A stretch of DNA of 64,000 bases from Sporosarcina sp. Te-1 (lineage in GTDB: Bacteria > Bacillota > Bacilli > Bacillales_A > Planococcaceae). The number at the start of each line of letters is the position of its first letter. Position 1 is the stretch's first letter. Both the position numbers and the translations under genes were made by a program. Under the pieces are notes generated by a model that saw only the letters and a program-made list of their open reading frames with translations, was not told where the DNA came from and did no database searches. The stretch is from assembly GCF_017498505.1 (NCBI RefSeq), contig NZ_CP071798.1, positions 2,687,501-2,751,500 of the forward strand, read 5' to 3'. Shown here piece after piece: positions 3,621-54,784 of this stretch.

Positions 3621-4406
3621 TTAGAAAAATTCGTACAATCCATCTGCGAAATATACGTACTCTTCCCTATTGATTGACATTCCATATCCCTCAAAAAAAA
3701 TCTCCCTGTCCTCGGTTCTCTCAAACATTCCCGGTTTCGGCCGGATGGCGAGGGCCAGATCATAACGGGGATCGCCAAATGCCCCGCCACTCCAATCGAT
3801 GATGCCCGTTACTTTGCCTTCTGCAGCAAGAACATTGTCGACAGTGAAATCGCCATGGATTAATTTCTGTTCTATCGCTCTCGGCTTGGATGTCTTCAAA
3901 CGATCCAGCAACTCTGCAGTTCCATCCACTTGATAGTGATGTGAATTGTATGTTGCGGTTTCAAGTTGCCGGTCCAGCCAATTGCCTTCTTCTATAAGAC
4001 CAACAGGACATGGAGCGACATGTAAACGGGCGAGCGCTTGGCCGAACTGAAATAGCAGGGAACGGCGTTTCGTTTCATCCGTCTCCCTCGAGAGTGCTGA
4101 GCGGATCGGTTCCCCTTCCAATACCTCAAGTACCAACCAATGCCCGGCCGGAGTTGCTGCACTTCCATAAACTTTAGGGACAGGCAGGCCTGTTCCCTGT
4201 AGATGTCGCAGCACATCCTCCTCCCGCACTAACCACGAGCGAAACGGCTCCTCTTTTGACCGCTTCACGATATATGTACCTTTCTCTCCGTTCACGATTC
4301 CCACGTCTGACGTTTGTCCTTGTTTTGGAAATTGTATATCCCGAATCTCCCCCGTCAAGTAAATCAATTCGCCTGGTATCTCTTCTTTGGATAACGGTGT
4401 TGTCAT
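3621..4406 (-). CDS. Aminoglycoside phosphotransferase (APH)-family kinase
   Basis: The 261-aa protein has the APH/choline-kinase fold. The catalytic loop LIHGDFTVDN lies near residue 188 and the metal-binding IIDWSG near 207. A degenerate N-lobe precedes them, with IVKRSKEEPF supplying the likely ATP-contacting lysine. AGGAGGG lies 7 nt before the ATG. Members phosphorylate small-molecule hydroxyls, including antibiotics and other metabolites. Nothing adjacent identifies the substrate, so a resistance role should not be assumed. It converges on the cobalamin operon, and its 5' flank holds a 20-bp repeat array. Confidence 0.85.
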   Translation of the reverse strand: MTTPLSKEEIPGELIYLTGEIRDIQFPKQGQTSDVGIVNGEKGTYIVKRSKEEPFRSWLVREEDVLRHLQGTGLPVPKVYGSAATPAGHWLVLEVLEGEPIRSALSRETDETKRRSLLFQFGQALARLHVAPCPVGLIEEGNWLDRQLETATYNSHHYQVDGTAELLDRLKTSKPRAIEQKLIHGDFTVDNVLAAEGKVTGIIDWSGGAFGDPRYDLALAIRPKPGMFERTEDREIFFEGYGMSINREEYVYFADGLYEFF

Positions 4407-4431
4407 GTAGTCCCTCCTACTACTAATGTTT

Positions 4432-4530
4432 GCCCTGGTTATCTGGCGTTCGTCCCGGTTATCTGACGTTCAACTCGATTTTCTGGCGCTCATTCCAATA
4501 CCCTCGCAGTCACCGTTTATCTGACGCTGC
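4432..4530. repeat. Array of five degenerate 20-bp repeats
   Basis: Five consecutive units start at 4432, 4452, 4472, 4492 and 4512. The clearest copies read CCCGGTTATCTGACGTTC. On the minus strand the core is GTCAGATAACCGGG, which resembles the 43.7-kb array. It lies in the gap between the APH kinase and the ZIP gene. The remaining part of this gap (4531-4670) shows nothing recognisable. Confidence 0.7.
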
Positions 4531-4688
4531 TCCTTTTAGGTGATTCTCACTTCTTCTCCATATCCCTTCCATTTTCCTTCTCAGGACGCAGCGGGCTTTG
4601 GGGAGGAAAATTAGAGACCTTTGAATTTCAGTACTGTCGTAATCGGAAGGGACATACACTTTCCATATCAGATAGGAGGAGGTTTAGT

Positions 4689-5417
4689 GTGGCATCGTTG
4701 CCGATCGTCAGTATTTTCATCTCGTCATTTTGCACATTGCTTGGGGCCCTCCCGACATTATTCATTGCCAACCTTTCACACGGAAAAAAAGACAACCTGC
4801 TAGCGTTTACCGCTGGCGTGATGGTTGCCGCCTCCACCTATAGCCTCATTCCTTCTGCGCTCAAGCTGTCAAATATGTTCGTGCTTTGTGTGGGTATCCT
4901 GTTAGGAGCTCTCGTATTGACCTTACTCGAAAAATCCCTTCCGCACAGTGACTTGGAACATTCTCAAACCATGCATGCGAGTGCATTTCTACTGTTCATC
5001 ACAATGGCGTTGCATAATATACCAGAAGGCCTGTCCGTCGGCGTCAGTTTTGCCAGTCAAGTGGAAGACCTGGGACCGCTTGTCGCTTTGGCGATCGGCT
5101 TGCAAAATATCCCTGAAGGTTTCCTGCTTGCCCTCTTTCTTATCACACAAGGGACCGGCCGCTGGAAGGCGTTCGGCTATACTTTTTTAGCCGGCTTTAC
5201 AGAATTCGCTTCCGCATTATCCGGCATGATTTTCGGTGAGCAGATGTTTACGATTGTCCCATATGGACTGGCTTTTGCCGCGGGCGCCATGTTGTTTATT
5301 GTCTACAAAGAATTGATTCCGGAAAGCCATGGGCATGGACATGAGCGTTCTGCCACGTTTTCCTTCATCCTTGGGCTGCTGATGATGATCGTTCTGACAG
5401 GATATCTTGGCGAATAA
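4689..5417 (+). CDS. ZIP-family divalent metal transporter
   Basis: This 242-aa membrane protein has about eight hydrophobic segments. The two metal-binding helices carry HNIPEGLSVGVSFA (about residues 112-125) and QNIPEGFLLALFL (about 143-155); in the second one the expected His is Gln. A histidine cluster SHGHGHE lies near residue 218, before the last helix. ZIP proteins move Zn(II) or other divalent metals into the cytoplasm. The start is GTG at 4689, preceded by AGGAGG; a downstream ATG is not needed. It is monocistronic. Confidence 0.9.
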   Translation: MASLPIVSIFISSFCTLLGALPTLFIANLSHGKKDNLLAFTAGVMVAASTYSLIPSALKLSNMFVLCVGILLGALVLTLLEKSLPHSDLEHSQTMHASAFLLFITMALHNIPEGLSVGVSFASQVEDLGPLVALAIGLQNIPEGFLLALFLITQGTGRWKAFGYTFLAGFTEFASALSGMIFGEQMFTIVPYGLAFAAGAMLFIVYKELIPESHGHGHERSATFSFILGLLMMIVLTGYLGE

Positions 5418-5703: not shown

Positions 5704-5874
5704 TTACTGGTCATTCGAATATTTTTGATGGCGTTTCACTTCGTCCTGTGCTTCTTTGCGTATCTCATCCACGCGCTGCTCCGCCTTTTTAGCCGCATTA
5801 TTTGCAATGGAGGAAAAGTCCCCCTGATTGACAGTTGGATTGTTTTCTTGATCTCCCGCATAGCTTTTCGTCAA
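5704..5874 (-). CDS. Small hydrophilic protein, unknown
   Basis: A TTG at 5874 has AAGGAG 8 nt upstream and gives a 56-residue acidic/basic protein with no membrane segment. An in-frame ATG at 5895 has no ribosome site and is less likely. The C-terminal half (AAKKAEQRVDEIRKEAQDEVKRHQ) is a predicted amphipathic helix. I do not recognise the family. It ends just before a terminator. Confidence 0.55.
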   Translation of the reverse strand: MTKSYAGDQENNPTVNQGDFSSIANNAAKKAEQRVDEIRKEAQDEVKRHQKYSNDQ

Positions 5875-5943
5875 TCCAATCACTCCTTGTCTCATTTCCC
5901 ACTAGCATTCCCGATTCGACTTGTTTAAAACGTATACATACCG

Positions 5944-5967
5944 TGAAATTTTAAAATTAAAATTTCA
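5944..5967. promoter_or_regulatory. AT-rich palindrome, possible operator
   Basis: TGAAATTTTAA and TTAAAATTTCA are perfect 11-bp arms separated by AA. It lies between the divergent small gene and the c-di-GMP gene. No regulator is assigned. Confidence 0.4.
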
Positions 5968-6039
5968 GCACTCTCTCCTCTTATAAAAGCCCCCAGGCAA
6001 CCGATATATTCCGTATCATCCTAATCCAGAGGTGTTATT

Positions 6040-8388
6040 GTGGATCATTCCATCGCTTCCATGTCAGAACATCAGCATATTCCCTATCTTGTCGTATTGT
6101 CGTATTTGATTGCGACGATGTCCGCATATGCCTCAATTGTCTTGGCTCGGCGTGTTACATTTACCCGGCAATCGGCGAAGCGGATTTGGCTCATTTTAGG
6201 GGCTGGAACACTCGGGATTGGCATTTGGTCGATGCATTTCATTGCCATGCTGTCCTACCAGTTTCCTGTCCCTGTGTATTACAATAATCTGCTTGTCGCC
6301 ACCTCGGTGGTCATTGCAATTGTCGGCTGTTATTTCGGCTATTTCATCATATCAGTGAATAATAAAAATAAAGTCCGTTTTTTTCTATCCGGCCTCATCA
6401 TGGGAATCGGCATTGCATCAATGCATTATGTCGGCATGGCCGCCCTGGAAGCAGTCACAATTGAATACAATCCGCTTCTATTTTCGATTTCCCTGTTGAT
6501 CGCCATCACTGCTTCGTGGGTCGCCATCTGGATTGGTTTTCTATCTCCTTATGCACGTCGACATATGGCATGGAAATTAAAAATAGTTTTTTCCATGATC
6601 ATGGCTGTCGCCATTACCGGCATGCATTACTCTGGCATGGCAGCTGCGACATTTTCCAGTATGTCAGCGTCTGACTCTTTTAAGGATGGCATGGATTCGA
6701 CACGGTTGGCGTGGTTCGTGGCCAGTGTCACCGTGCTTATCTTTGCCCTTTTCTTCTGCTCCATCGTCATCGACCGGCTGTGGCAGAAACGGGAATTGGT
6801 CCAAAATACATTACTGGATTCCATTGCAGATGGCATTGTTATTACCGATCAAACAGGCACCATTTTGCACGCCAATCCTTCTTTCCGTCAATTGATGGGA
6901 GAGGTAACATCTAGCCAACGTTTCGATAAACTGCAGTATTACCATCCAGAATTAACTGAACAGATTACGAGTGAGCTTGATTTCCATGTAGCCATTCAAT
7001 CGTTGATTTTGGAAGTAAAGCGACGACCCATCCAGGAGGAAGCTCTTCATCATTCACTTTGGTTCCTGCGGGATATTACAGAGCAAATTAAAAATGAAAA
7101 ACAAATCACATACATGGCTTATCATGATTCGTTGACGAGGCTTCCAAATCGACATAAGCTGGATGCCACTCTGGCCAATTGGTTCGATGCCAAAAAGACG
7201 ATCGGCTGTATTTTCATAAATGTGGATCGGATGAAATTCGCGAACGACACACTCGGCCACCAAGCGGGGGACCAGCTTCTCCGCCAAATCGCAGGCCGAC
7301 TTGAGGAAAACATTCAGGATAAAGGCTTCCTTGCCAGAGTCGGTGGTGATGAATTTGTCATCCTGTTGGCGGATGGCTATGTAAAAGAATCGTTCCGTTT
7401 GGCGGAAGCATGTGTTTCAGCCATGAATGAACCCCTTTCTATTCACGGAACTCAGCTGGCCATCTCGATAAGCGCAGGCACCTGCATTTATCCGAAGGAT
7501 GCCGCCAATCCGAACGAGCTTCTTCAGTTTGCAGACTTGGCCATGTCCGAGTCCAAACGGAATGGAAAAAATCAAGTGACTGCCTTCACAGCAAAGTTAA
7601 ACGACCAATATCGTCGCAAGCTTCAAATTGAAGAGGCACTATCTCTGGCAATCGATCAGGCCGAACTCCATCTCCTGTATCAACCCAAAGTGTCGGTAAG
7701 AAGTGGCAAGGTAAAAGGCGTCGAAGCATTATTGCGTTGGATCCATCCACAGCATGGCTTCATCTCGCCTGTAGAATTCATTCCGATTGCAGAGGAGAAA
7801 GGGTTGATTCATAAAATCGGAGATTGGGTTCTGAAGGAAGCATGCCTGCAATGGGTGAAATGGAAAAACGAAATGGAAGAGCCACCGATTATTGCGGTCA
7901 ACATTTCGCCTCTTCAACTCTCAAGAGAGGATTTCTTGCCTGGGTTACTGAAAATCTTGCAGGAAACGAAGATGGATCCGCGTTTCTTAGAATTGGAACT
8001 GACAGAATCCGCTTCCCTTGGCTTCGCTGAAAAGACGAATGGGTGGCTCAGTCATTTGCACGAACTGGGCATCCAAATTTCACTCGATGACTTTGGCACA
8101 GGCTATTCCTCCTTTAGCCATTTAAAGGAGCTGCCCATTGATGTGTTGAAAATCGACCGCTCCTTCCTGCGTAATCTGATTAACAACCCCGGGCAAGAAG
8201 CCATTGTCCGCTCCATCATCCAGCTAGGCCATAATTTAAACTTGCAAGTGCTGATGGAAGGCGTGGAGGAAAAAGTACAAGTGGAATGGCTAGAGAAGGA
8301 AGGTTGTGACCTTATTCAAGGTTACTATTTCGCCAAGCCGCAATTACCGGCGGACCTTGAGCCGATGCTAAAAGATAACGGCTTGTGA
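6040..8388 (+). CDS. MHYT-GGDEF-EAL cyclic-di-GMP enzyme (DgcW/YkoW-like)
   Basis: The 782-aa protein starts at GTG after GAGGTG. Residues about 10-250 form seven membrane helices with repeated MHF/MHY motifs (WSMHFIAM, ASMHYVGM, TGMHYSGM), the MHYT sensor that probably binds metal and a diatomic gas. A short PAS-like linker follows (about 262-345). The GGDEF domain (about 355-510) has an intact RVGGDEF signature, and the EAL domain (about 525-775) keeps EALLRW, ELTESA and DDFGTGYSS. Both synthesis and hydrolysis of c-di-GMP are therefore possible. The domain order matches Bacillus subtilis DgcW (YkoW). Confidence 0.93.
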   Translation: MDHSIASMSEHQHIPYLVVLSYLIATMSAYASIVLARRVTFTRQSAKRIWLILGAGTLGIGIWSMHFIAMLSYQFPVPVYYNNLLVATSVVIAIVGCYFGYFIISVNNKNKVRFFLSGLIMGIGIASMHYVGMAALEAVTIEYNPLLFSISLLIAITASWVAIWIGFLSPYARRHMAWKLKIVFSMIMAVAITGMHYSGMAAATFSSMSASDSFKDGMDSTRLAWFVASVTVLIFALFFCSIVIDRLWQKRELVQNTLLDSIADGIVITDQTGTILHANPSFRQLMGEVTSSQRFDKLQYYHPELTEQITSELDFHVAIQSLILEVKRRPIQEEALHHSLWFLRDITEQIKNEKQITYMAYHDSLTRLPNRHKLDATLANWFDAKKTIGCIFINVDRMKFANDTLGHQAGDQLLRQIAGRLEENIQDKGFLARVGGDEFVILLADGYVKESFRLAEACVSAMNEPLSIHGTQLAISISAGTCIYPKDAANPNELLQFADLAMSESKRNGKNQVTAFTAKLNDQYRRKLQIEEALSLAIDQAELHLLYQPKVSVRSGKVKGVEALLRWIHPQHGFISPVEFIPIAEEKGLIHKIGDWVLKEACLQWVKWKNEMEEPPIIAVNISPLQLSREDFLPGLLKILQETKMDPRFLELELTESASLGFAEKTNGWLSHLHELGIQISLDDFGTGYSSFSHLKELPIDVLKIDRSFLRNLINNPGQEAIVRSIIQLGHNLNLQVLMEGVEEKVQVEWLEKEGCDLIQGYYFAKPQLPADLEPMLKDNGL

Positions 8389-8402
8389 GAAGCGTTGCAA
8401 TC

Positions 8403-8437
8403 AACCCGTCATGCGTCATGCGCATACGGGTTTTTAG
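8403..8437 (+). terminator. Terminator of the c-di-GMP gene
   Basis: AACCCGT and ACGGGTT arms are followed by a T tract. Confidence 0.8.
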
Positions 8438-8506
8438 CCTTTTTGTTTTGAATCCGCCTCGAATTGCATGCTACAGTGTGAATATCAAAAGAAAACGGGA
8501 GGATTT

Positions 8507-9769
8507 ATGGATATCAGAATACAAGCGATTGCAGATAGAGCCCAAACCGAATTCGGCCTTGAAAACTACCGGTTGGGACGCCATGCAATTTTTCAAAAAC
8601 AAGATGCCCTGGGGGAACCGTACTATCAACTTTCAATGGAATGGTTTCCGTTCACAGCAGGCGAAATAGAAGAGGATGAAAATCCTGACGGAACTGCAGT
8701 CATTGATTATCATATTCAGGAGGAGCGTTTTGAAACGGTCATTTTTGTGATGGAGCAATCCGAGTCGACTTGCCGGCCTTTTATGAACAAGACCGTTGAG
8801 GAGATGGCATCCTTTGTGGAACGGCAAACCCGATACCAATTCGGCCGTGATTTTTTTGTACGAGAGTTCTATGGTTCTGGGGTTTCGTTCCATTCGGAGG
8901 TAGATGGCATCCGTCTATCCCCCAACTTCCAAGCTGAAGTAAATTGCGATGAACAAGGGCGATTGATTTCCTTTACAACGTATGGAAAAGCGCCGGACCC
9001 ACATGCGATCATGCAACAAGAGTTCCATATGACGCTCGAGGAAATTGAACCGCTTGTACAAGAGCATGTCAAACTGTTTGAATTCCCTTCAGAAACAAGG
9101 GGGAAATTTGTTTCTGCCTATACCGTAGATGAAGTATTCATTGCTGTCGATGGTTCGACCTGCCTTCCATTTTTCACGGATGAGCGCATGGCAGTACCGG
9201 TGGGGGAATTATTGGAGTGGACAGAGCCATTGCACGGTTCAATTAACCGAAACCCACTGGGGCCTTCACAGGCGGTTGATGTTGAGGAAGCCTTCCAAGA
9301 GCGAACGACAGAAGCCTTCTGCCTCTCCGCTGAACAAGTAGAGCAGTGTAAATTGGCAGTGCTTACCGCATTACGCATGGAATATCCCGAGGAGAGCGGG
9401 AAATGGAGATTGAAAATGCTGCAGCCAGAACAGCGATACATCAGCGCATTCTGTCAAGCTGCTGAAAGTACAGCCAGCGATATTCTTCGCCCGAAGCTAG
9501 TCTTCTTTATCGACAAGTCTACGATGAATGTTATGAACCTGATGGACAACCGGCTGATGCTGCAAGACATGTTCAACTCATTCCAGCCTGCAGAACCAGC
9601 TAAAATCGATAAAGGCACAGCCTTTGAAGCTTTAGTGCCATATATTACAATGGAACCTGTCTACGTTTATGACTTCCGCAACAAAACATATGTATTATGT
9701 GGATTAATTGATACGGATGTTGCGGTGGATGCTGTCAGTGGAGAGATTGTAACGTTGGAGGATTTATAA
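8507..9769 (+). CDS. Unknown 420-aa protein with YcdB/PepSY-like features
   Basis: ATG at 8507 is preceded by CGGGAGGA; an in-frame ATG at 8468 lacks a site. There is no signal peptide or membrane segment. The protein is acidic and built of two similar-looking alpha/beta halves. Its end, IDTDVAVDAVSGEIVTLED, resembles the repeat ends of YcdB/YcdC and PepSY-type proteins, but this is only a visual match. It is a single-gene unit closed by a terminator. I do not assign a function. Confidence 0.75.
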   Translation: MDIRIQAIADRAQTEFGLENYRLGRHAIFQKQDALGEPYYQLSMEWFPFTAGEIEEDENPDGTAVIDYHIQEERFETVIFVMEQSESTCRPFMNKTVEEMASFVERQTRYQFGRDFFVREFYGSGVSFHSEVDGIRLSPNFQAEVNCDEQGRLISFTTYGKAPDPHAIMQQEFHMTLEEIEPLVQEHVKLFEFPSETRGKFVSAYTVDEVFIAVDGSTCLPFFTDERMAVPVGELLEWTEPLHGSINRNPLGPSQAVDVEEAFQERTTEAFCLSAEQVEQCKLAVLTALRMEYPEESGKWRLKMLQPEQRYISAFCQAAESTASDILRPKLVFFIDKSTMNVMNLMDNRLMLQDMFNSFQPAEPAKIDKGTAFEALVPYITMEPVYVYDFRNKTYVLCGLIDTDVAVDAVSGEIVTLEDL

Positions 9770-51833: not shown

Positions 51834-51992
51834 TCATTGCGGCGGCATTACATCAGGCGGATGCAGATTTCCATTGCCCGTTGTATAGGTGGACATTTCA
51901 TCGTTCACTTGAACGGATGCAAATGCGTTTCCCGTGCCGACGAAAGCTAAAAATAAGACAGCCAAGAACGCTACAGACCATTTTCGCTTCAT
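51834..51992 (-). CDS. Secreted propeptide of an RRNPP-type signalling pair
   Basis: The 52-aa ORF begins at ATG 51992, which overlaps the receptor stop codon (ATGA). The ribosome site GGGGAGA lies inside the receptor's last codons. Basic N-terminus MKRK, hydrophobic core (about 6-18) and a cleavage-like NAFA (about 22-25) form a Sec signal peptide. The rest is short and polar, ending with NLHPPDVMPPQ. This is the arrangement of Rap-Phr and NprR-NprX, where a C-terminal 5-8-mer is exported, cut, re-imported by Opp and binds the receptor. The mature peptide is inferred. Confidence 0.75.
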   Translation of the reverse strand: MKRKWSVAFLAVLFLAFVGTGNAFASVQVNDEMSTYTTGNGNLHPPDVMPPQ

Positions 51993-53227
51993 GTCATCTT
52001 CTCCCCTTTCTCATAAAAGTAAATCGCATAGGCATCGGCCTTCTCATAGTTGCCGATGGAGCGGTGATAGTTGGCGAGTCGCCAAGCAAAACGTCTTGCT
52101 TCCCCTATATAACCATGTTCTTTTAAAAAAGGGAATGCTATTTGTTCACAATAGTCAAAAAGATCTCGTTGGGAAAATTTCACCTTACGAAAGTATGTCA
52201 GTTGTATGGTTAAATATGGGTCATCCTTCCCTCGAAGGAATACCTCTAATTCCTCAAGCAGGTGATCTATTTCAAGTCCTTCCTCTGCGGATGTCTGCAA
52301 CATATGAATGAGAACCGATGAATATATCGGTGCTTCCGGTGTGATCAACGATTTTAATTCCTTCAACAGCATATAGGCCGACTTGTGGTGCCCTCTTCTG
52401 TTCTGAAGCATCGAATAATTATAGAGCACACCTTCATACAAGGACGACTCTTCCATAAGACGAGCGTTCCGCAAAAGTGTCTTAAACAACTCCTCCGCCT
52501 GCAAATATAAATCCCGATTGGCATAGTTCACAGCTTGGAGCATTTGAGCATGCATCAGGCGCAAATAATTACAGTCCTTCTGGAACTGATTGATAGCCAG
52601 TTCCGCGAAATAGGACGATTTGCCGTATTCAGTGTTCCTCTGTGATAGCCAGGCATTCTGATAGTAAAACTCCCCCTCAAACAATTGTGGCACCCGCCCT
52701 TGACTATCTTCGATGCGCCCGACAATCTCCTTCGCTTTTTCTTTGTCTTGAATTGACACATAATATATAAGGTAAAAGACCTTGGCAGCCCCACGTTCGT
52801 ATTCATCAAATGTCGGCTCCAACCTTGATAAAATTCTCATTTGCTGGGTTGCTCTCTGCCGATCTTGTTGAAATAAATAATATCGAAGCTTGTATAGCTC
52901 ATAGCGATTGATCAGGTCAGTAGACTGTAAATAATCCCTGTTCTGTTCCAATTCTGCATAGAGTGCTTCCATGGATTTCAAATCATAGTAAACCGAGTAC
53001 GTAATGAACTTTTCTAACTTCTCTTTATAGGCATGATATACATCCACCTCTTGGTTCCACTCGATATTCATCCGTGCAAAGAGCTCTTCTAACGTCTCTT
53101 GATGCGGAACATATTTGTTCGATTCAATTTTACTCAAATGGGAGATCGAACAAATTCCCTCGCATAACTCAGCTTGGGTAAGATTATGTTTCATACGGTA
53201 ATACTTCACGATCGAACCGATATTCAT
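51989..53227 (-). CDS. RRNPP-type HTH-TPR quorum-sensing receptor
   Basis: ATG at 53227 has GGGGGTG upstream; a longer frame lacks a site. The 412-aa protein has an XRE HTH at residues about 4-58 (IVKYYRMKHNLTQAELCEG, SHLSKIESNKYVP) followed by helical TPR-like repeats to the end (residues about 90-405), as in PlcR, NprR and Rgg/ComR-type RRNPP proteins. The last codons overlap the propeptide start. A terminator separates it from the subtilisin gene upstream, so the protease is a plausible target or neighbour. Confidence 0.88.
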   Translation of the reverse strand: MNIGSIVKYYRMKHNLTQAELCEGICSISHLSKIESNKYVPHQETLEELFARMNIEWNQEVDVYHAYKEKLEKFITYSVYYDLKSMEALYAELEQNRDYLQSTDLINRYELYKLRYYLFQQDRQRATQQMRILSRLEPTFDEYERGAAKVFYLIYYVSIQDKEKAKEIVGRIEDSQGRVPQLFEGEFYYQNAWLSQRNTEYGKSSYFAELAINQFQKDCNYLRLMHAQMLQAVNYANRDLYLQAEELFKTLLRNARLMEESSLYEGVLYNYSMLQNRRGHHKSAYMLLKELKSLITPEAPIYSSVLIHMLQTSAEEGLEIDHLLEELEVFLRGKDDPYLTIQLTYFRKVKFSQRDLFDYCEQIAFPFLKEHGYIGEARRFAWRLANYHRSIGNYEKADAYAIYFYEKGEKMT

Positions 53228-53285: not shown

Positions 53286-53318
53286 AAAACAGTCCCAGGG
53301 GAGTTGAGGACTGTTTTA
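53286..53318 (-). terminator. Terminator between protease and receptor genes
   Basis: AAAACAGTCC and GGACTGTTTT arms, T tracts on both strands. Confidence 0.85.
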
Positions 53319-53358: not shown

Positions 53359-54648
53359 TTAGCGAACCCGAGCAAACCCGAATCCAGAAGCGATATCATC
53401 ACCTGCAGCTGCATAATAGCCACCGTTGATATCATAAGCTTTAGCGCGATTTTGCAAGTTCGTCCGCAATTGAATATTGGAATAGCCAGGATTTTCAGCC
53501 CAAATTTTAGCTGCCAACCCTGAAACATGCGGTGTCGCCATCGATGTTCCACTGATGGTTGCATAACTACCGTTGTACCACGTGGAATAAATTTGAGTTC
53601 CTGGTGAAGCTATTTCAACATCACCGCGTTGGATAACATAATCTCCAGCTGTCTGCGAAAACCCTCTGGAAGATGTATTGGCCACACGGTAGGTGCCATT
53701 TTCCATTCGATTTTCTAAATTGGCTACCGCCACTGCGGTAGGTAGAGCTGCCGGATAACCGATGGAACCAGGGGAATAACCGCTATTACCAGCTGCTGCC
53801 ACAATCAATGCTCCTCGCTCATAGGCATAGTTGACTGCGTTTGTAATCAGTGAACTTTCTCCACTGGAACCAAGGGACATATTGATAACTACATTCGTCC
53901 GTTGTGCAGACGCCTGATCCGCTGCATGTCGAATGGCATTTGCAATATCATCCGCATAACCATTGCCTGCATCATTTAACACCTTATACGCCCACAGCTT
54001 TGCGTCAGGGGCAACACCGTATACACCTCTTTGATCGGCACCTCCATCCCCTAACGCCGTTCCGGCTACATGTGTGCCATGTCCATTCCGATCTGTACAT
54101 GTATTGTTCACAATTGGAGAACTTTGTGTAAAGTCTTTACATTGCTCCGCATTGGCATAAAGGTCGCTATGGGTGATATTGACGCCCGTATCAAGTACAG
54201 CAACCCGGATACCGGTTCCACCTGTTGTAGATGTTAAGTTCGTGTCATTATAAATTGCTTTAATCCCCCATGGCACCGATTGGCTGGCAGCTGCAGCTTC
54301 CATTTCATCAGTGACTTCTAAGGACGCTGGATCAATTTGTACGGAAAGAACCGGGACTTTTTCAACCTTTACATGCCCCATCTGCTGAAGTGCTTGATAT
54401 TCCTTTTCTGTCACGTCTGCGGTATAGGATCGGGTGTCAAATTGATTGCGCAACGGAAAACTCTGTTGCAATTCTTGAATCTCGGTATGACTTTCCGTTT
54501 CAATCAATACTCGGAACGTATCACCACGTTGTTCCAGTTTTTCCTCCTTCAGTTCACGCAAACCATCCTTGGCGTTTACTCCGGTTGTCGGAAACATCAT
54601 ACCTGCGGCAAGAAATAAAGCGGCAATCACTTTCACTCGATTCTTCAA
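53359..54648 (-). CDS. Secreted subtilisin-family serine protease
   Basis: The 429-aa preproprotease has a signal peptide (about 1-26, cleavage near VNA), an inhibitor I9-type propeptide (about 40-105) and an S8 catalytic domain. The catalytic triad is Asp153 (VLDTG), His190 (NGHGTHVAG) and Ser369 (GTSMATPH); Asn288 forms the oxyanion hole. Two Cys (170 and 184) could form a disulfide, as in thermostable proteases of the Ak.1 type. TTG start after AGGGGCG. Probably an extracellular nutritional protease. Confidence 0.94.
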   Translation of the reverse strand: MKNRVKVIAALFLAAGMMFPTTGVNAKDGLRELKEEKLEQRGDTFRVLIETESHTEIQELQQSFPLRNQFDTRSYTADVTEKEYQALQQMGHVKVEKVPVLSVQIDPASLEVTDEMEAAAASQSVPWGIKAIYNDTNLTSTTGGTGIRVAVLDTGVNITHSDLYANAEQCKDFTQSSPIVNNTCTDRNGHGTHVAGTALGDGGADQRGVYGVAPDAKLWAYKVLNDAGNGYADDIANAIRHAADQASAQRTNVVINMSLGSSGESSLITNAVNYAYERGALIVAAAGNSGYSPGSIGYPAALPTAVAVANLENRMENGTYRVANTSSRGFSQTAGDYVIQRGDVEIASPGTQIYSTWYNGSYATISGTSMATPHVSGLAAKIWAENPGYSNIQLRTNLQNRAKAYDINGGYYAAAGDDIASGFGFARVR

Positions 54649-54784
54649 ATGCTTCGCCCCTATTCAAATTTTTTTGCCTTACAACTTTACTGTAGCAAAC
54701 TATGACAACCTTCGAAATTGGGAAAAACCGCTTCTTTCCACTTCAGTAGAGACTTATATACTAAGAACTTTATAACTACATATA

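What the first reader, a model, noticed from the sequence alone, without database searches (positions are those of the whole stretch)
51834..53227. Candidate RRNPP peptide quorum-sensing pair beside a subtilisin
Seen: a 412-aa HTH plus TPR-repeat receptor whose stop codon overlaps (ATGA) the start of a 52-aa ORF with a basic N-terminus, hydrophobic core, NAFA cleavage-like site and polar C-terminus. Known: Rap-Phr, NprR-NprX and PlcR-PapR work this way, with a C-terminal 5-8-mer imported by Opp. Inferred: a mature peptide from the PPDVMPPQ end; NprX also carries a PD core. The propeptide is too short for ordinary ORF calling. A separately terminated subtilisin precedes it and is a plausible target.
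Basis: partly seen in the sequence, partly recalled or inferred. Interest (0 to 1): 0.8.

Follow-up and report, generated by a model that had tools for sequence, protein, structure and literature searches.

The report
Peptide quorum-sensing pair guarding a subtilisin
A bacterium related to Sporosarcina carries a small secreted-type signal peptide and the protein that probably senses it, kept beside one protein-digesting enzyme across almost a hundred related species, so this is probably a cell-density switch for that enzyme.

Summary
In detail: a 412-aa HTH receptor (minus strand, 53227-51989) overlaps by ATGA a 52-aa secreted-type ORF (51992-51834). The pair is not chance. Of 261 family genomes, 92 carry this receptor subfamily; 91 of the 92 have an adjacent leader-type small ORF with a conserved [IV]x-Pro-Pro tail (window: PPDVMPPQ), while the middle varies or is absent; 0 of 185 control genes do. 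Four propeptides repeat the tail 3-4 times, which marks the pheromone. Sequence and fold searches put the receptor nearest NprR, then Rap. The neighbouring subtilisin is adjacent in 85 of 92 genomes, same-strand in 54, divergent in 31. All 85 carry TTTTCCCAAT (70 exact at 32 nt before an extended -10, 14 with 1-2 mismatches at 32, one exact at 31); the exact form occurs once in the own genome. Best reading: an NprR-like quorum-sensing pair dedicated to one exoprotease. Secretion, peptide binding, DNA binding and direction of control are inferred. Known kind (RRNPPA); no description of this subfamily was met in the papers searched.

The parts
51989..53227 (-). Receptor: 412-aa HTH plus TPR-type regulator of the RRNPPA kind, NprR-like
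53063..53209 (-). HTH_3 DNA-binding domain of the receptor (residues 7-55)
   Evidence: E 6.8e-8; 36 of 36 relatives
51834..51992 (-). Propeptide ORF, 52 aa, ATGA overlap with the receptor stop
   Evidence: dN/dS 0.10, 0.14 and 0.11 against L005, L006 and L007
51918..51992 (-). Signal-peptide-like segment (residues 1-25, MKRK... NAFA)
   Evidence: Sequence; no signal-peptide program was available
51837..51860 (-). Predicted pheromone region PPDVMPPQ (residues 45-52; exact ends unknown)
   Evidence: conserved tail, tandem copies and short propeptides in relatives
53359..54648 (-). Subtilisin (S8 protease, 429 aa, TTG start), predicted target
   Evidence: linkage
54717..54726 (-). Conserved element TTTTCCCAAT upstream of the subtilisin, candidate operator
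54689..54697 (-). Extended -10 (TGCTACAGT) of the subtilisin promoter, 32 nt from the element start to the TA
53286..53317 (.). Inverted repeat between subtilisin and receptor (AAAACAGTCC ... GGACTGTTTT), terminator-like
   Evidence: similar repeats in relatives' intergenic regions; not listed (loop too long)

Best explanation
This is a peptide quorum-sensing pair of the RRNPPA kind. The 52-aa propeptide is exported (Sec-type leader), cut to a short Pro-Pro-containing pheromone from its C-terminus, taken back up by an oligopeptide permease, and bound in the TPR groove of the 412-aa receptor. The peptide-loaded receptor then binds the TTTTCCCAAT element at about -44 to -35 of the predicted subtilisin promoter and switches on the subtilisin at high cell density. 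Shown: the pair, its conservation, the conserved tail, the NprR-like profile and fold match, the linkage to the subtilisin and the element at a fixed place. Inferred: export, cutting, uptake, peptide binding, that this receptor is what binds the element, and that the effect is activation.
Against: No experiment. The model is of middling confidence (mean pLDDT 74, pTM 0.53; residues 1-50 in blocks of 37-57). Genomes are related, so loci are not independent events and Fisher's p is too small. The tail and element patterns were chosen after seeing the relatives. The element is not a clear inverted repeat and could serve another regulator; exact element-like matches occur somewhere in 116 of 261 genomes, receptor or not. 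Five genomes of the own genus lack the subtilisin yet keep the pair, the promoter and the element, so either the loss is recent or the element has another use. Selection on the propeptide is weaker in some pairs (L013-L019: dN 0.19, dS 0.40, 2 non-synonymous codons in the last ten). In another family (f33; L137, L138) the triad is present but the element has one mismatch and no fitting -10 at 32 nt. G074 has a subtilisin with element (spacing 31) and no receptor at E 1e-20, though its contig ends 193 bases beyond the gene.
Confidence: 0.77

Rival explanations
1. The pair is a real pheromone-receptor system and controls the subtilisin, but as a repressor that the peptide releases (as in Rap or AimR type logic), not as a peptide-dependent activator.
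For: The element overlaps the predicted -35 region of the subtilisin promoter, where a repressor would also act; PMC11343458 (introduction read) states that in AimR and Rap systems the pheromone usually inhibits the receptor.
Against: The nearest relative by profile, NprR, needs its HTH for nprA expression and is a tetrameric activator with peptide (PMC4970707, passages). The subtilisin promoters have an extended -10 and, by eye, no good -35, as activator-dependent promoters often do (recalled).
Confidence: 0.2
2. The pair is a pheromone-receptor system, but the subtilisin is the maturation protease of the propeptide rather than its target; the shared neighbourhood reflects processing.
For: PMC11343458 (passages) says that one or several of eight extracellular proteases mature a Phr propeptide in B. 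subtilis and cites a paper on subtilisin, Epr and Vpr for CSF. Linkage in 85 of 92 would fit this as well.
Against: A fixed promoter element in front of the subtilisin, missing in the G016 subtilisin that lacks this receptor, speaks for regulation. Five genomes keep the pair without the subtilisin. Propeptides of 28-33 aa need little further cutting. Not exclusive with the best explanation.
Confidence: 0.15
3. The small ORF is not a signal but a secreted inhibitor or chaperone of the subtilisin that happens to be co-transcribed with an HTH regulator.
For: It is secreted-type and lies near a secreted protease.
Against: Across genera only the short C-terminal tail is conserved, some propeptides are 28 aa, some repeat the tail, it follows the receptor gene rather than the protease in tandem and divergent arrangements alike, and it persists where the subtilisin is missing.
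Confidence: 0.04
4. The small ORF is a chance reading frame.
For: Overlapping or nearby frames of this size are common: 40 of 50 window genes have some small ORF behind them.
Against: 91 of 92 relatives, synonymous change exceeding non-synonymous change, 0 of 185 controls with leader and tail.
Confidence: 0.01

Closest known systems
NprR-NprX (Bacillus cereus group)
   Same: HTH plus TPR receptor of about the same length, profile match over positions 59-402 (E 4.1e-34), propeptide gene next to it, extracellular protease gene as a target (nprA; passages of PMC4970707; that nprA encodes a protease is recalled)
   Different: NprR residues for Spo0F (D107, Y118, Y223; E188 kept) and for NprX (R126, W167, H201, N306, D309) are not kept in the window protein by the alignment; pheromone is a C-terminal Pro-Pro peptide, not SKPDIVG; the linked protease is an S8 subtilisin with a fixed element
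Rap-Phr
   Different: Rap lacks an HTH; this receptor group has one in 36 of 36 relatives scanned
PlcR-PapR
   Same: HTH plus TPR activator with secreted propeptide (recalled and PMC9765709, passages)
   Different: No PlcR chain among the seven PDB sequence matches at E 1e-5, which excludes nothing; a PlcR box was not searched for
RRNPP_detector clusters (34 high-confidence clusters, 21 novel; PMC10075063)
   Same: Same definition: 250-500 aa TPR receptor with adjacent 10-100 aa exported propeptide (passages and sections 7, 8)
   Different: Whether one cluster is this subfamily could not be checked: figure 3 and the data set are not held; the main text has none of the genus names searched for
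Leaderless communication peptides with RopB-clan receptors (PMC10518010)
   Same: A predicted pair in Lysinibacillus sphaericus, so peptide signalling has been proposed in this bacterial family before (passages)
   Different: Those peptides are mostly 8-10 aa without leader and belong to RopB-clan receptors; here there is a leader and an NprR-like receptor

Membership tests
RRNPPA receptor-pheromone systems | Intracellular receptor with TPR-type superhelix | tested here: met
   Profile match to NprR and Rap, fold match, single TPR models in up to 16 of 36 relatives
RRNPPA receptor-pheromone systems | Adjacent gene for a short exported propeptide, conserved with the receptor | tested here: met
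   91 of 92 loci; export judged by leader composition only
RRNPPA receptor-pheromone systems | Mature C-terminal peptide binds the receptor | not testable with these tools
   Needs a binding assay or a complex structure
RRNPPA receptor-pheromone systems | Oligopeptide permease for uptake in the genome | tested here: met
   11 matched stretches of PF00496, about 9 genes; 11 of 14 control genomes have the family too, and specificity for this peptide is unknown
NprR subfamily | HTH and TPR region with similarity along the NprR chain | tested here: met
   Alignment to 4gpk over profile positions 59-402 plus HTH_3
NprR subfamily | Spo0F-contact residues D107, Y118, E188, Y223 | tested here: not met
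   Aligned window residues S102, K113, E184, C219: one of four kept (low-identity alignment)
NprR subfamily | NprX-contact residues R126, W167, H201, N306, D309 | tested here: not met
   Aligned window residues Q121, K162, R197, I301, S304: none kept (low-identity alignment)
NprR subfamily | SKPDIVG-like pheromone | tested here: not met
   Tails are [IV]x-PP type in 91 of 91 propeptides
Rap | No DNA-binding domain | tested here: not met
   HTH_3 present
PlcR | Closest sequence or fold match is PlcR | tested here: inconclusive
   No PlcR chain or among the rows shown; absence from a list excludes nothing

The most novel reading that the evidence does not exclude
A family-wide, three-gene quorum module in Planococcaceae: a Pro-Pro pheromone that is chemically suited to survive subtilisin, its own NprR-like receptor, and one dedicated subtilisin that both answers to the pheromone and helps to mature it, so that protease output and signal reinforce each other. 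In divergent genera one element serves both promoters: it lies over the -35 region of the subtilisin promoter and, in 24 of 31 divergent loci, between a -35-like and a -10-like hexamer of the receptor promoter, which would switch the protease on while limiting the receptor.
Probability: 0.22. Interest if true: 0.78.

Novelty: new member of a known kind. Interest (0 to 1): 0.62.

Why it matters
It proposes, from sequence alone, all four parts of a quorum-sensing circuit: pheromone, receptor, operator candidate and target. 41 distinct pheromone tails among 91 species genomes, with one target promoter design, make a natural set for testing how peptide and receptor specificity co-evolve. In the papers searched I met only one proposal of peptide signalling in this bacterial family, a leaderless RopB-clan pair in Lysinibacillus sphaericus (PMC10518010, passages), and none of this subfamily (listings or passages only).

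Tried and rejected
Rejected: chance ORF; NprX-like PD core (Asp not conserved); a mobile-element home (no relative confirmed among 26 candidate stretches of viral contigs; one 55-residue match to the HTH part in phages; 3 plasmid matches at 25-29% identity). A large regulon of this exact design: with up to 2 mismatches the own genome has 27 matches against 13 for the reversed pattern; I did not check what genes the others face. Pfam RNPP_C (PF18768) does not match in the own genome. The promoter-terminator scan was not far above its shuffles (11 against 6.7, 4 against 2.9). PHROGs gave only weak matches, mostly regulators. PlcR does not appear among the fold rows shown, which excludes nothing.

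Literature, what I saw: search listings for (10 of 142 listed); passages of PMC9765709, PMC10075063 (sections 7 and 8 in 29, 30), PMC11343458 (introduction in 82), PMC12700828, PMC4970707 (section 10 in 72) and PMC10518010. The other listed papers were not opened. Supplements and figures were not available, so an earlier listing of this subfamily in the RRNPP_detector data cannot be excluded.

Counting notes: the subfamily set held 90 loci because L100 and L101 were left out by mistake; both have leader and tail and are in the 92. Five named loci (L005-L009) stand for five unnamed copies of the same contigs. Eight of the 100 genomes are outside the subfamily (more distant receptors, none with a matching small ORF by the scan).

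Full report
What is there. On the minus strand of the window, a 412-aa receptor gene (53227-51989) ends in ATGA, which starts a 52-aa ORF (51992-51834). A subtilisin gene (54648-53359) lies upstream on the same strand, with a 10-pair inverted repeat between the two genes (53286-53317). The nearest named relatives found are Sporosarcina luteola S00266 (92% receptor identity), S. cyprini (88%), Sporosarcina sp. NCCP-2222 (87%), S. luteola NBRC 105378 (62%) and S. quadrami (59%).

Is the pair real? 100 of 261 genomes of the same family have a receptor relative at E 1e-20. With a profile of 36 relatives, 92 of the 261 fall into one clear group (391 bits or more; the next hits are at 272 bits and below, the first four being second copies in G012-G015). 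I read the stretch behind the receptor in each. 91 of 92 have a small ORF with a hydrophobic leader whose C-terminal part carries [IV]x-Pro-Pro; the exception is L093. In 36 of 92 a start lies in the 4-base overlap, as in the window. In 51 of 91 the ORF ends one residue after the last Pro-Pro, in 29 two residues after, in the other 11 three to six. The two prolines are part of the search pattern, so their presence in 91 of 91 is by construction; that 91 of 92 loci satisfy the pattern is the result. 41 distinct tails occur, for example PPDVMPPQ (window), PPSILPPQV, GPNVLPPI, APHILPPL, TIPILPPID, SVPIHPPVL. As a control, the same scan behind 50 other window genes and 135 genes flanking the receptors gave 0 and 0 with leader and tail; a hydrophobic small ORF of any kind was found behind 1 of 50 and 20 of 135, against 89 of the 90 receptors then in the set. 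The propeptide shows more synonymous than non-synonymous change (window versus L005: dN 0.034, dS 0.34; versus L006: 0.079 and 0.56), with no amino-acid change in the last ten codons but 1-3 synonymous ones in all six pairs of L001, L005, L006, L007. Of the six other pairs tried, three have 2 non-synonymous codons there (L008-L009, L014-L019, L013-L019) and three have none; the weakest constraint was L013-L019 (dN 0.19, dS 0.40).

What is the pheromone? Three hints agree. The tail is the part that is conserved across genera. In L083, L100 and L101 the unit IPIHPPIG occurs three times, and in L097 FPIHPPIL four times. And 28 of 91 propeptides are only 28-33 aa, a leader followed almost at once by the tail (GPNVLPPL, APHILPPL, IPIYPPVLS). 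So the active peptide is probably 7-9 residues ending at or near the C-terminus; in the window PPDVMPPQ or HPPDVMPPQ.

What does it control? Clustering of the neighbouring genes gave one outstanding family: the subtilisin. It is next to the receptor in 85 of 92 genomes, on the same strand in 54 and divergent in 31. Of the seven others, L034 is at a contig edge and its genome (G105) has the subtilisin, with element, on another contig; five genomes of the own genus (L006, L007, L008, L009, L013) have no close subtilisin; L093 lacks it too. Searched on its own, a close subtilisin (E 1e-60) occurs in 87 of 261 genomes, 85 of which have the receptor; receptor without it 7 (one of them G061, where the gene is cut by a contig end), it without receptor 2 (G016, G074), neither 167 (Fisher p 1.7e-57). 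Relatedness of the genomes makes this p too small, but the link survives a change of gene orientation between genera whose receptors are only 25-27% identical to the window's.

The promoter element. The divergent intergenic regions show ATTGGGAA(A); read towards the subtilisin this is TTTTCCCAAT. The same word stands in front of the subtilisin in the tandem genomes. Over all 85 linked loci, after fetching the 13 that had been cut short or missed, it lies before the TA of an extended -10 (TGnTAnnnT): exact at 32 nt in 70, with one mismatch at 32 in 13, with two mismatches at 32 in 1, exact at 31 in 1 (L095). In the window it is at 54726-54717 with TGCTACAGT at 54697-54689. In the whole own genome the exact element with TGnTA at a gap of 17-21 occurs once, here; with fixed spacing and up to two mismatches 27 times against 13 for the reversed pattern. 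Family-wide, 116 of 261 genomes have some exact match, so the word is not exclusive; its place is what is conserved. The five genomes of the own genus without subtilisin still carry promoter and element upstream of the receptor (0-1 mismatch, 32 nt), like a scar of a recent loss. L093 lacks propeptide, subtilisin and element together. G016 has a subtilisin orthologue (about 60% identical) without this receptor and without the element; beside it, divergent, is a different receptor-like gene with its own leader-type small ORF. This swap is the best natural control that the element goes with the receptor, but it is one case. G074 has subtilisin and element (spacing 31) and no receptor at E 1e-20, its contig ending 193 bases beyond the gene. 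In 24 of 31 divergent loci the element also lies between a -35-like and a -10-like hexamer (4 of 6 or more in the -10) of the receptor promoter; no shuffle control was run for that.

Outside the family, two genomes of another family (f33; L137, L138) have the full triad: subtilisin at 53% identity, receptor (387 and 377 bits), small ORFs ending MPPILPPA and MPPIQPPV; the word there is TTTTCCCAAA and no fitting -10 stands at 32 nt. These came from 398 genomes drawn from the class; L139, the next receptor at 312 bits, had no such small ORF by the scan used.

How it probably works. Export by the Sec route and trimming, uptake by Opp (11 matched PF00496 stretches, about 9 genes), binding in the receptor groove, and activation of the subtilisin promoter from a site over the -35 region. 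NprR, the nearest known relative, needs its HTH to activate nprA and is a tetramer with NprX (PMC4970707, passages). Activation is therefore preferred over repression, but neither is shown. The subtilisin might also trim the propeptide; extracellular proteases do this for a Phr peptide in B. subtilis (PMC11343458, passages). The prolines of the tail would make it a poor subtilisin substrate (inference).

What is known. The kind is well known. Four RRNPPA papers do not hold the words Planococc-, Sporosarcina, Lysinibacillus or Solibacillus in the main text. A fifth, PMC10518010, predicts a leaderless RopB-clan pair in Lysinibacillus sphaericus, a different class (passages). No listed title or abstract start (10 of 142 shown) and 78 describes this subfamily; most listed papers were not opened. 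The RRNPP_detector data set may list some of these pairs; it could not be opened. I therefore file it as a new member, apparently an undescribed subfamily, of a known kind.

Noticed in passing
Own genome, L002 (G000:C1:1349388-1350626, minus): A second receptor-propeptide pair; its propeptide tail ADDDLPEPLKGKPPVHQKGN is nearly the same in L198, L199 and L200 from three other genomes; a fourth (L197) showed no such ORF by the scan.
   Followed up: partly
Own genome, L004 (match G000:C1:3976691-3977557, minus) and L003 (match 2804564-2804728, minus): Two further receptor-like genes each followed by a leader-type small ORF; the L004 type recurs in other genomes (L201-L210, L212) with tails such as DQLPKVFKTFSYTIQK.
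   Followed up: partly
L163 (G016), 5816-8648 and just after: The same subtilisin (about 60% identity) is divergent to a different receptor-like gene with its own small ORF ending DPGVPEIIVEG: an apparent swap of quorum-sensing regulator on one target.
   Followed up: partly
L215 (G013), 4065-5282: In four genomes of one genus (G012-G015) a second TPR-type protein that matches the profile only from about position 32-45 on, so seems to lack the HTH, follows the propeptide.
   Followed up: no
L166 (G100:C24): Two subtilisin genes in tandem, each with its own element at the 32-nt spacing.
   Followed up: no
L160 (G116:C12): The subtilisin promoter with its element is duplicated, 97 bases apart.
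   Followed up: no
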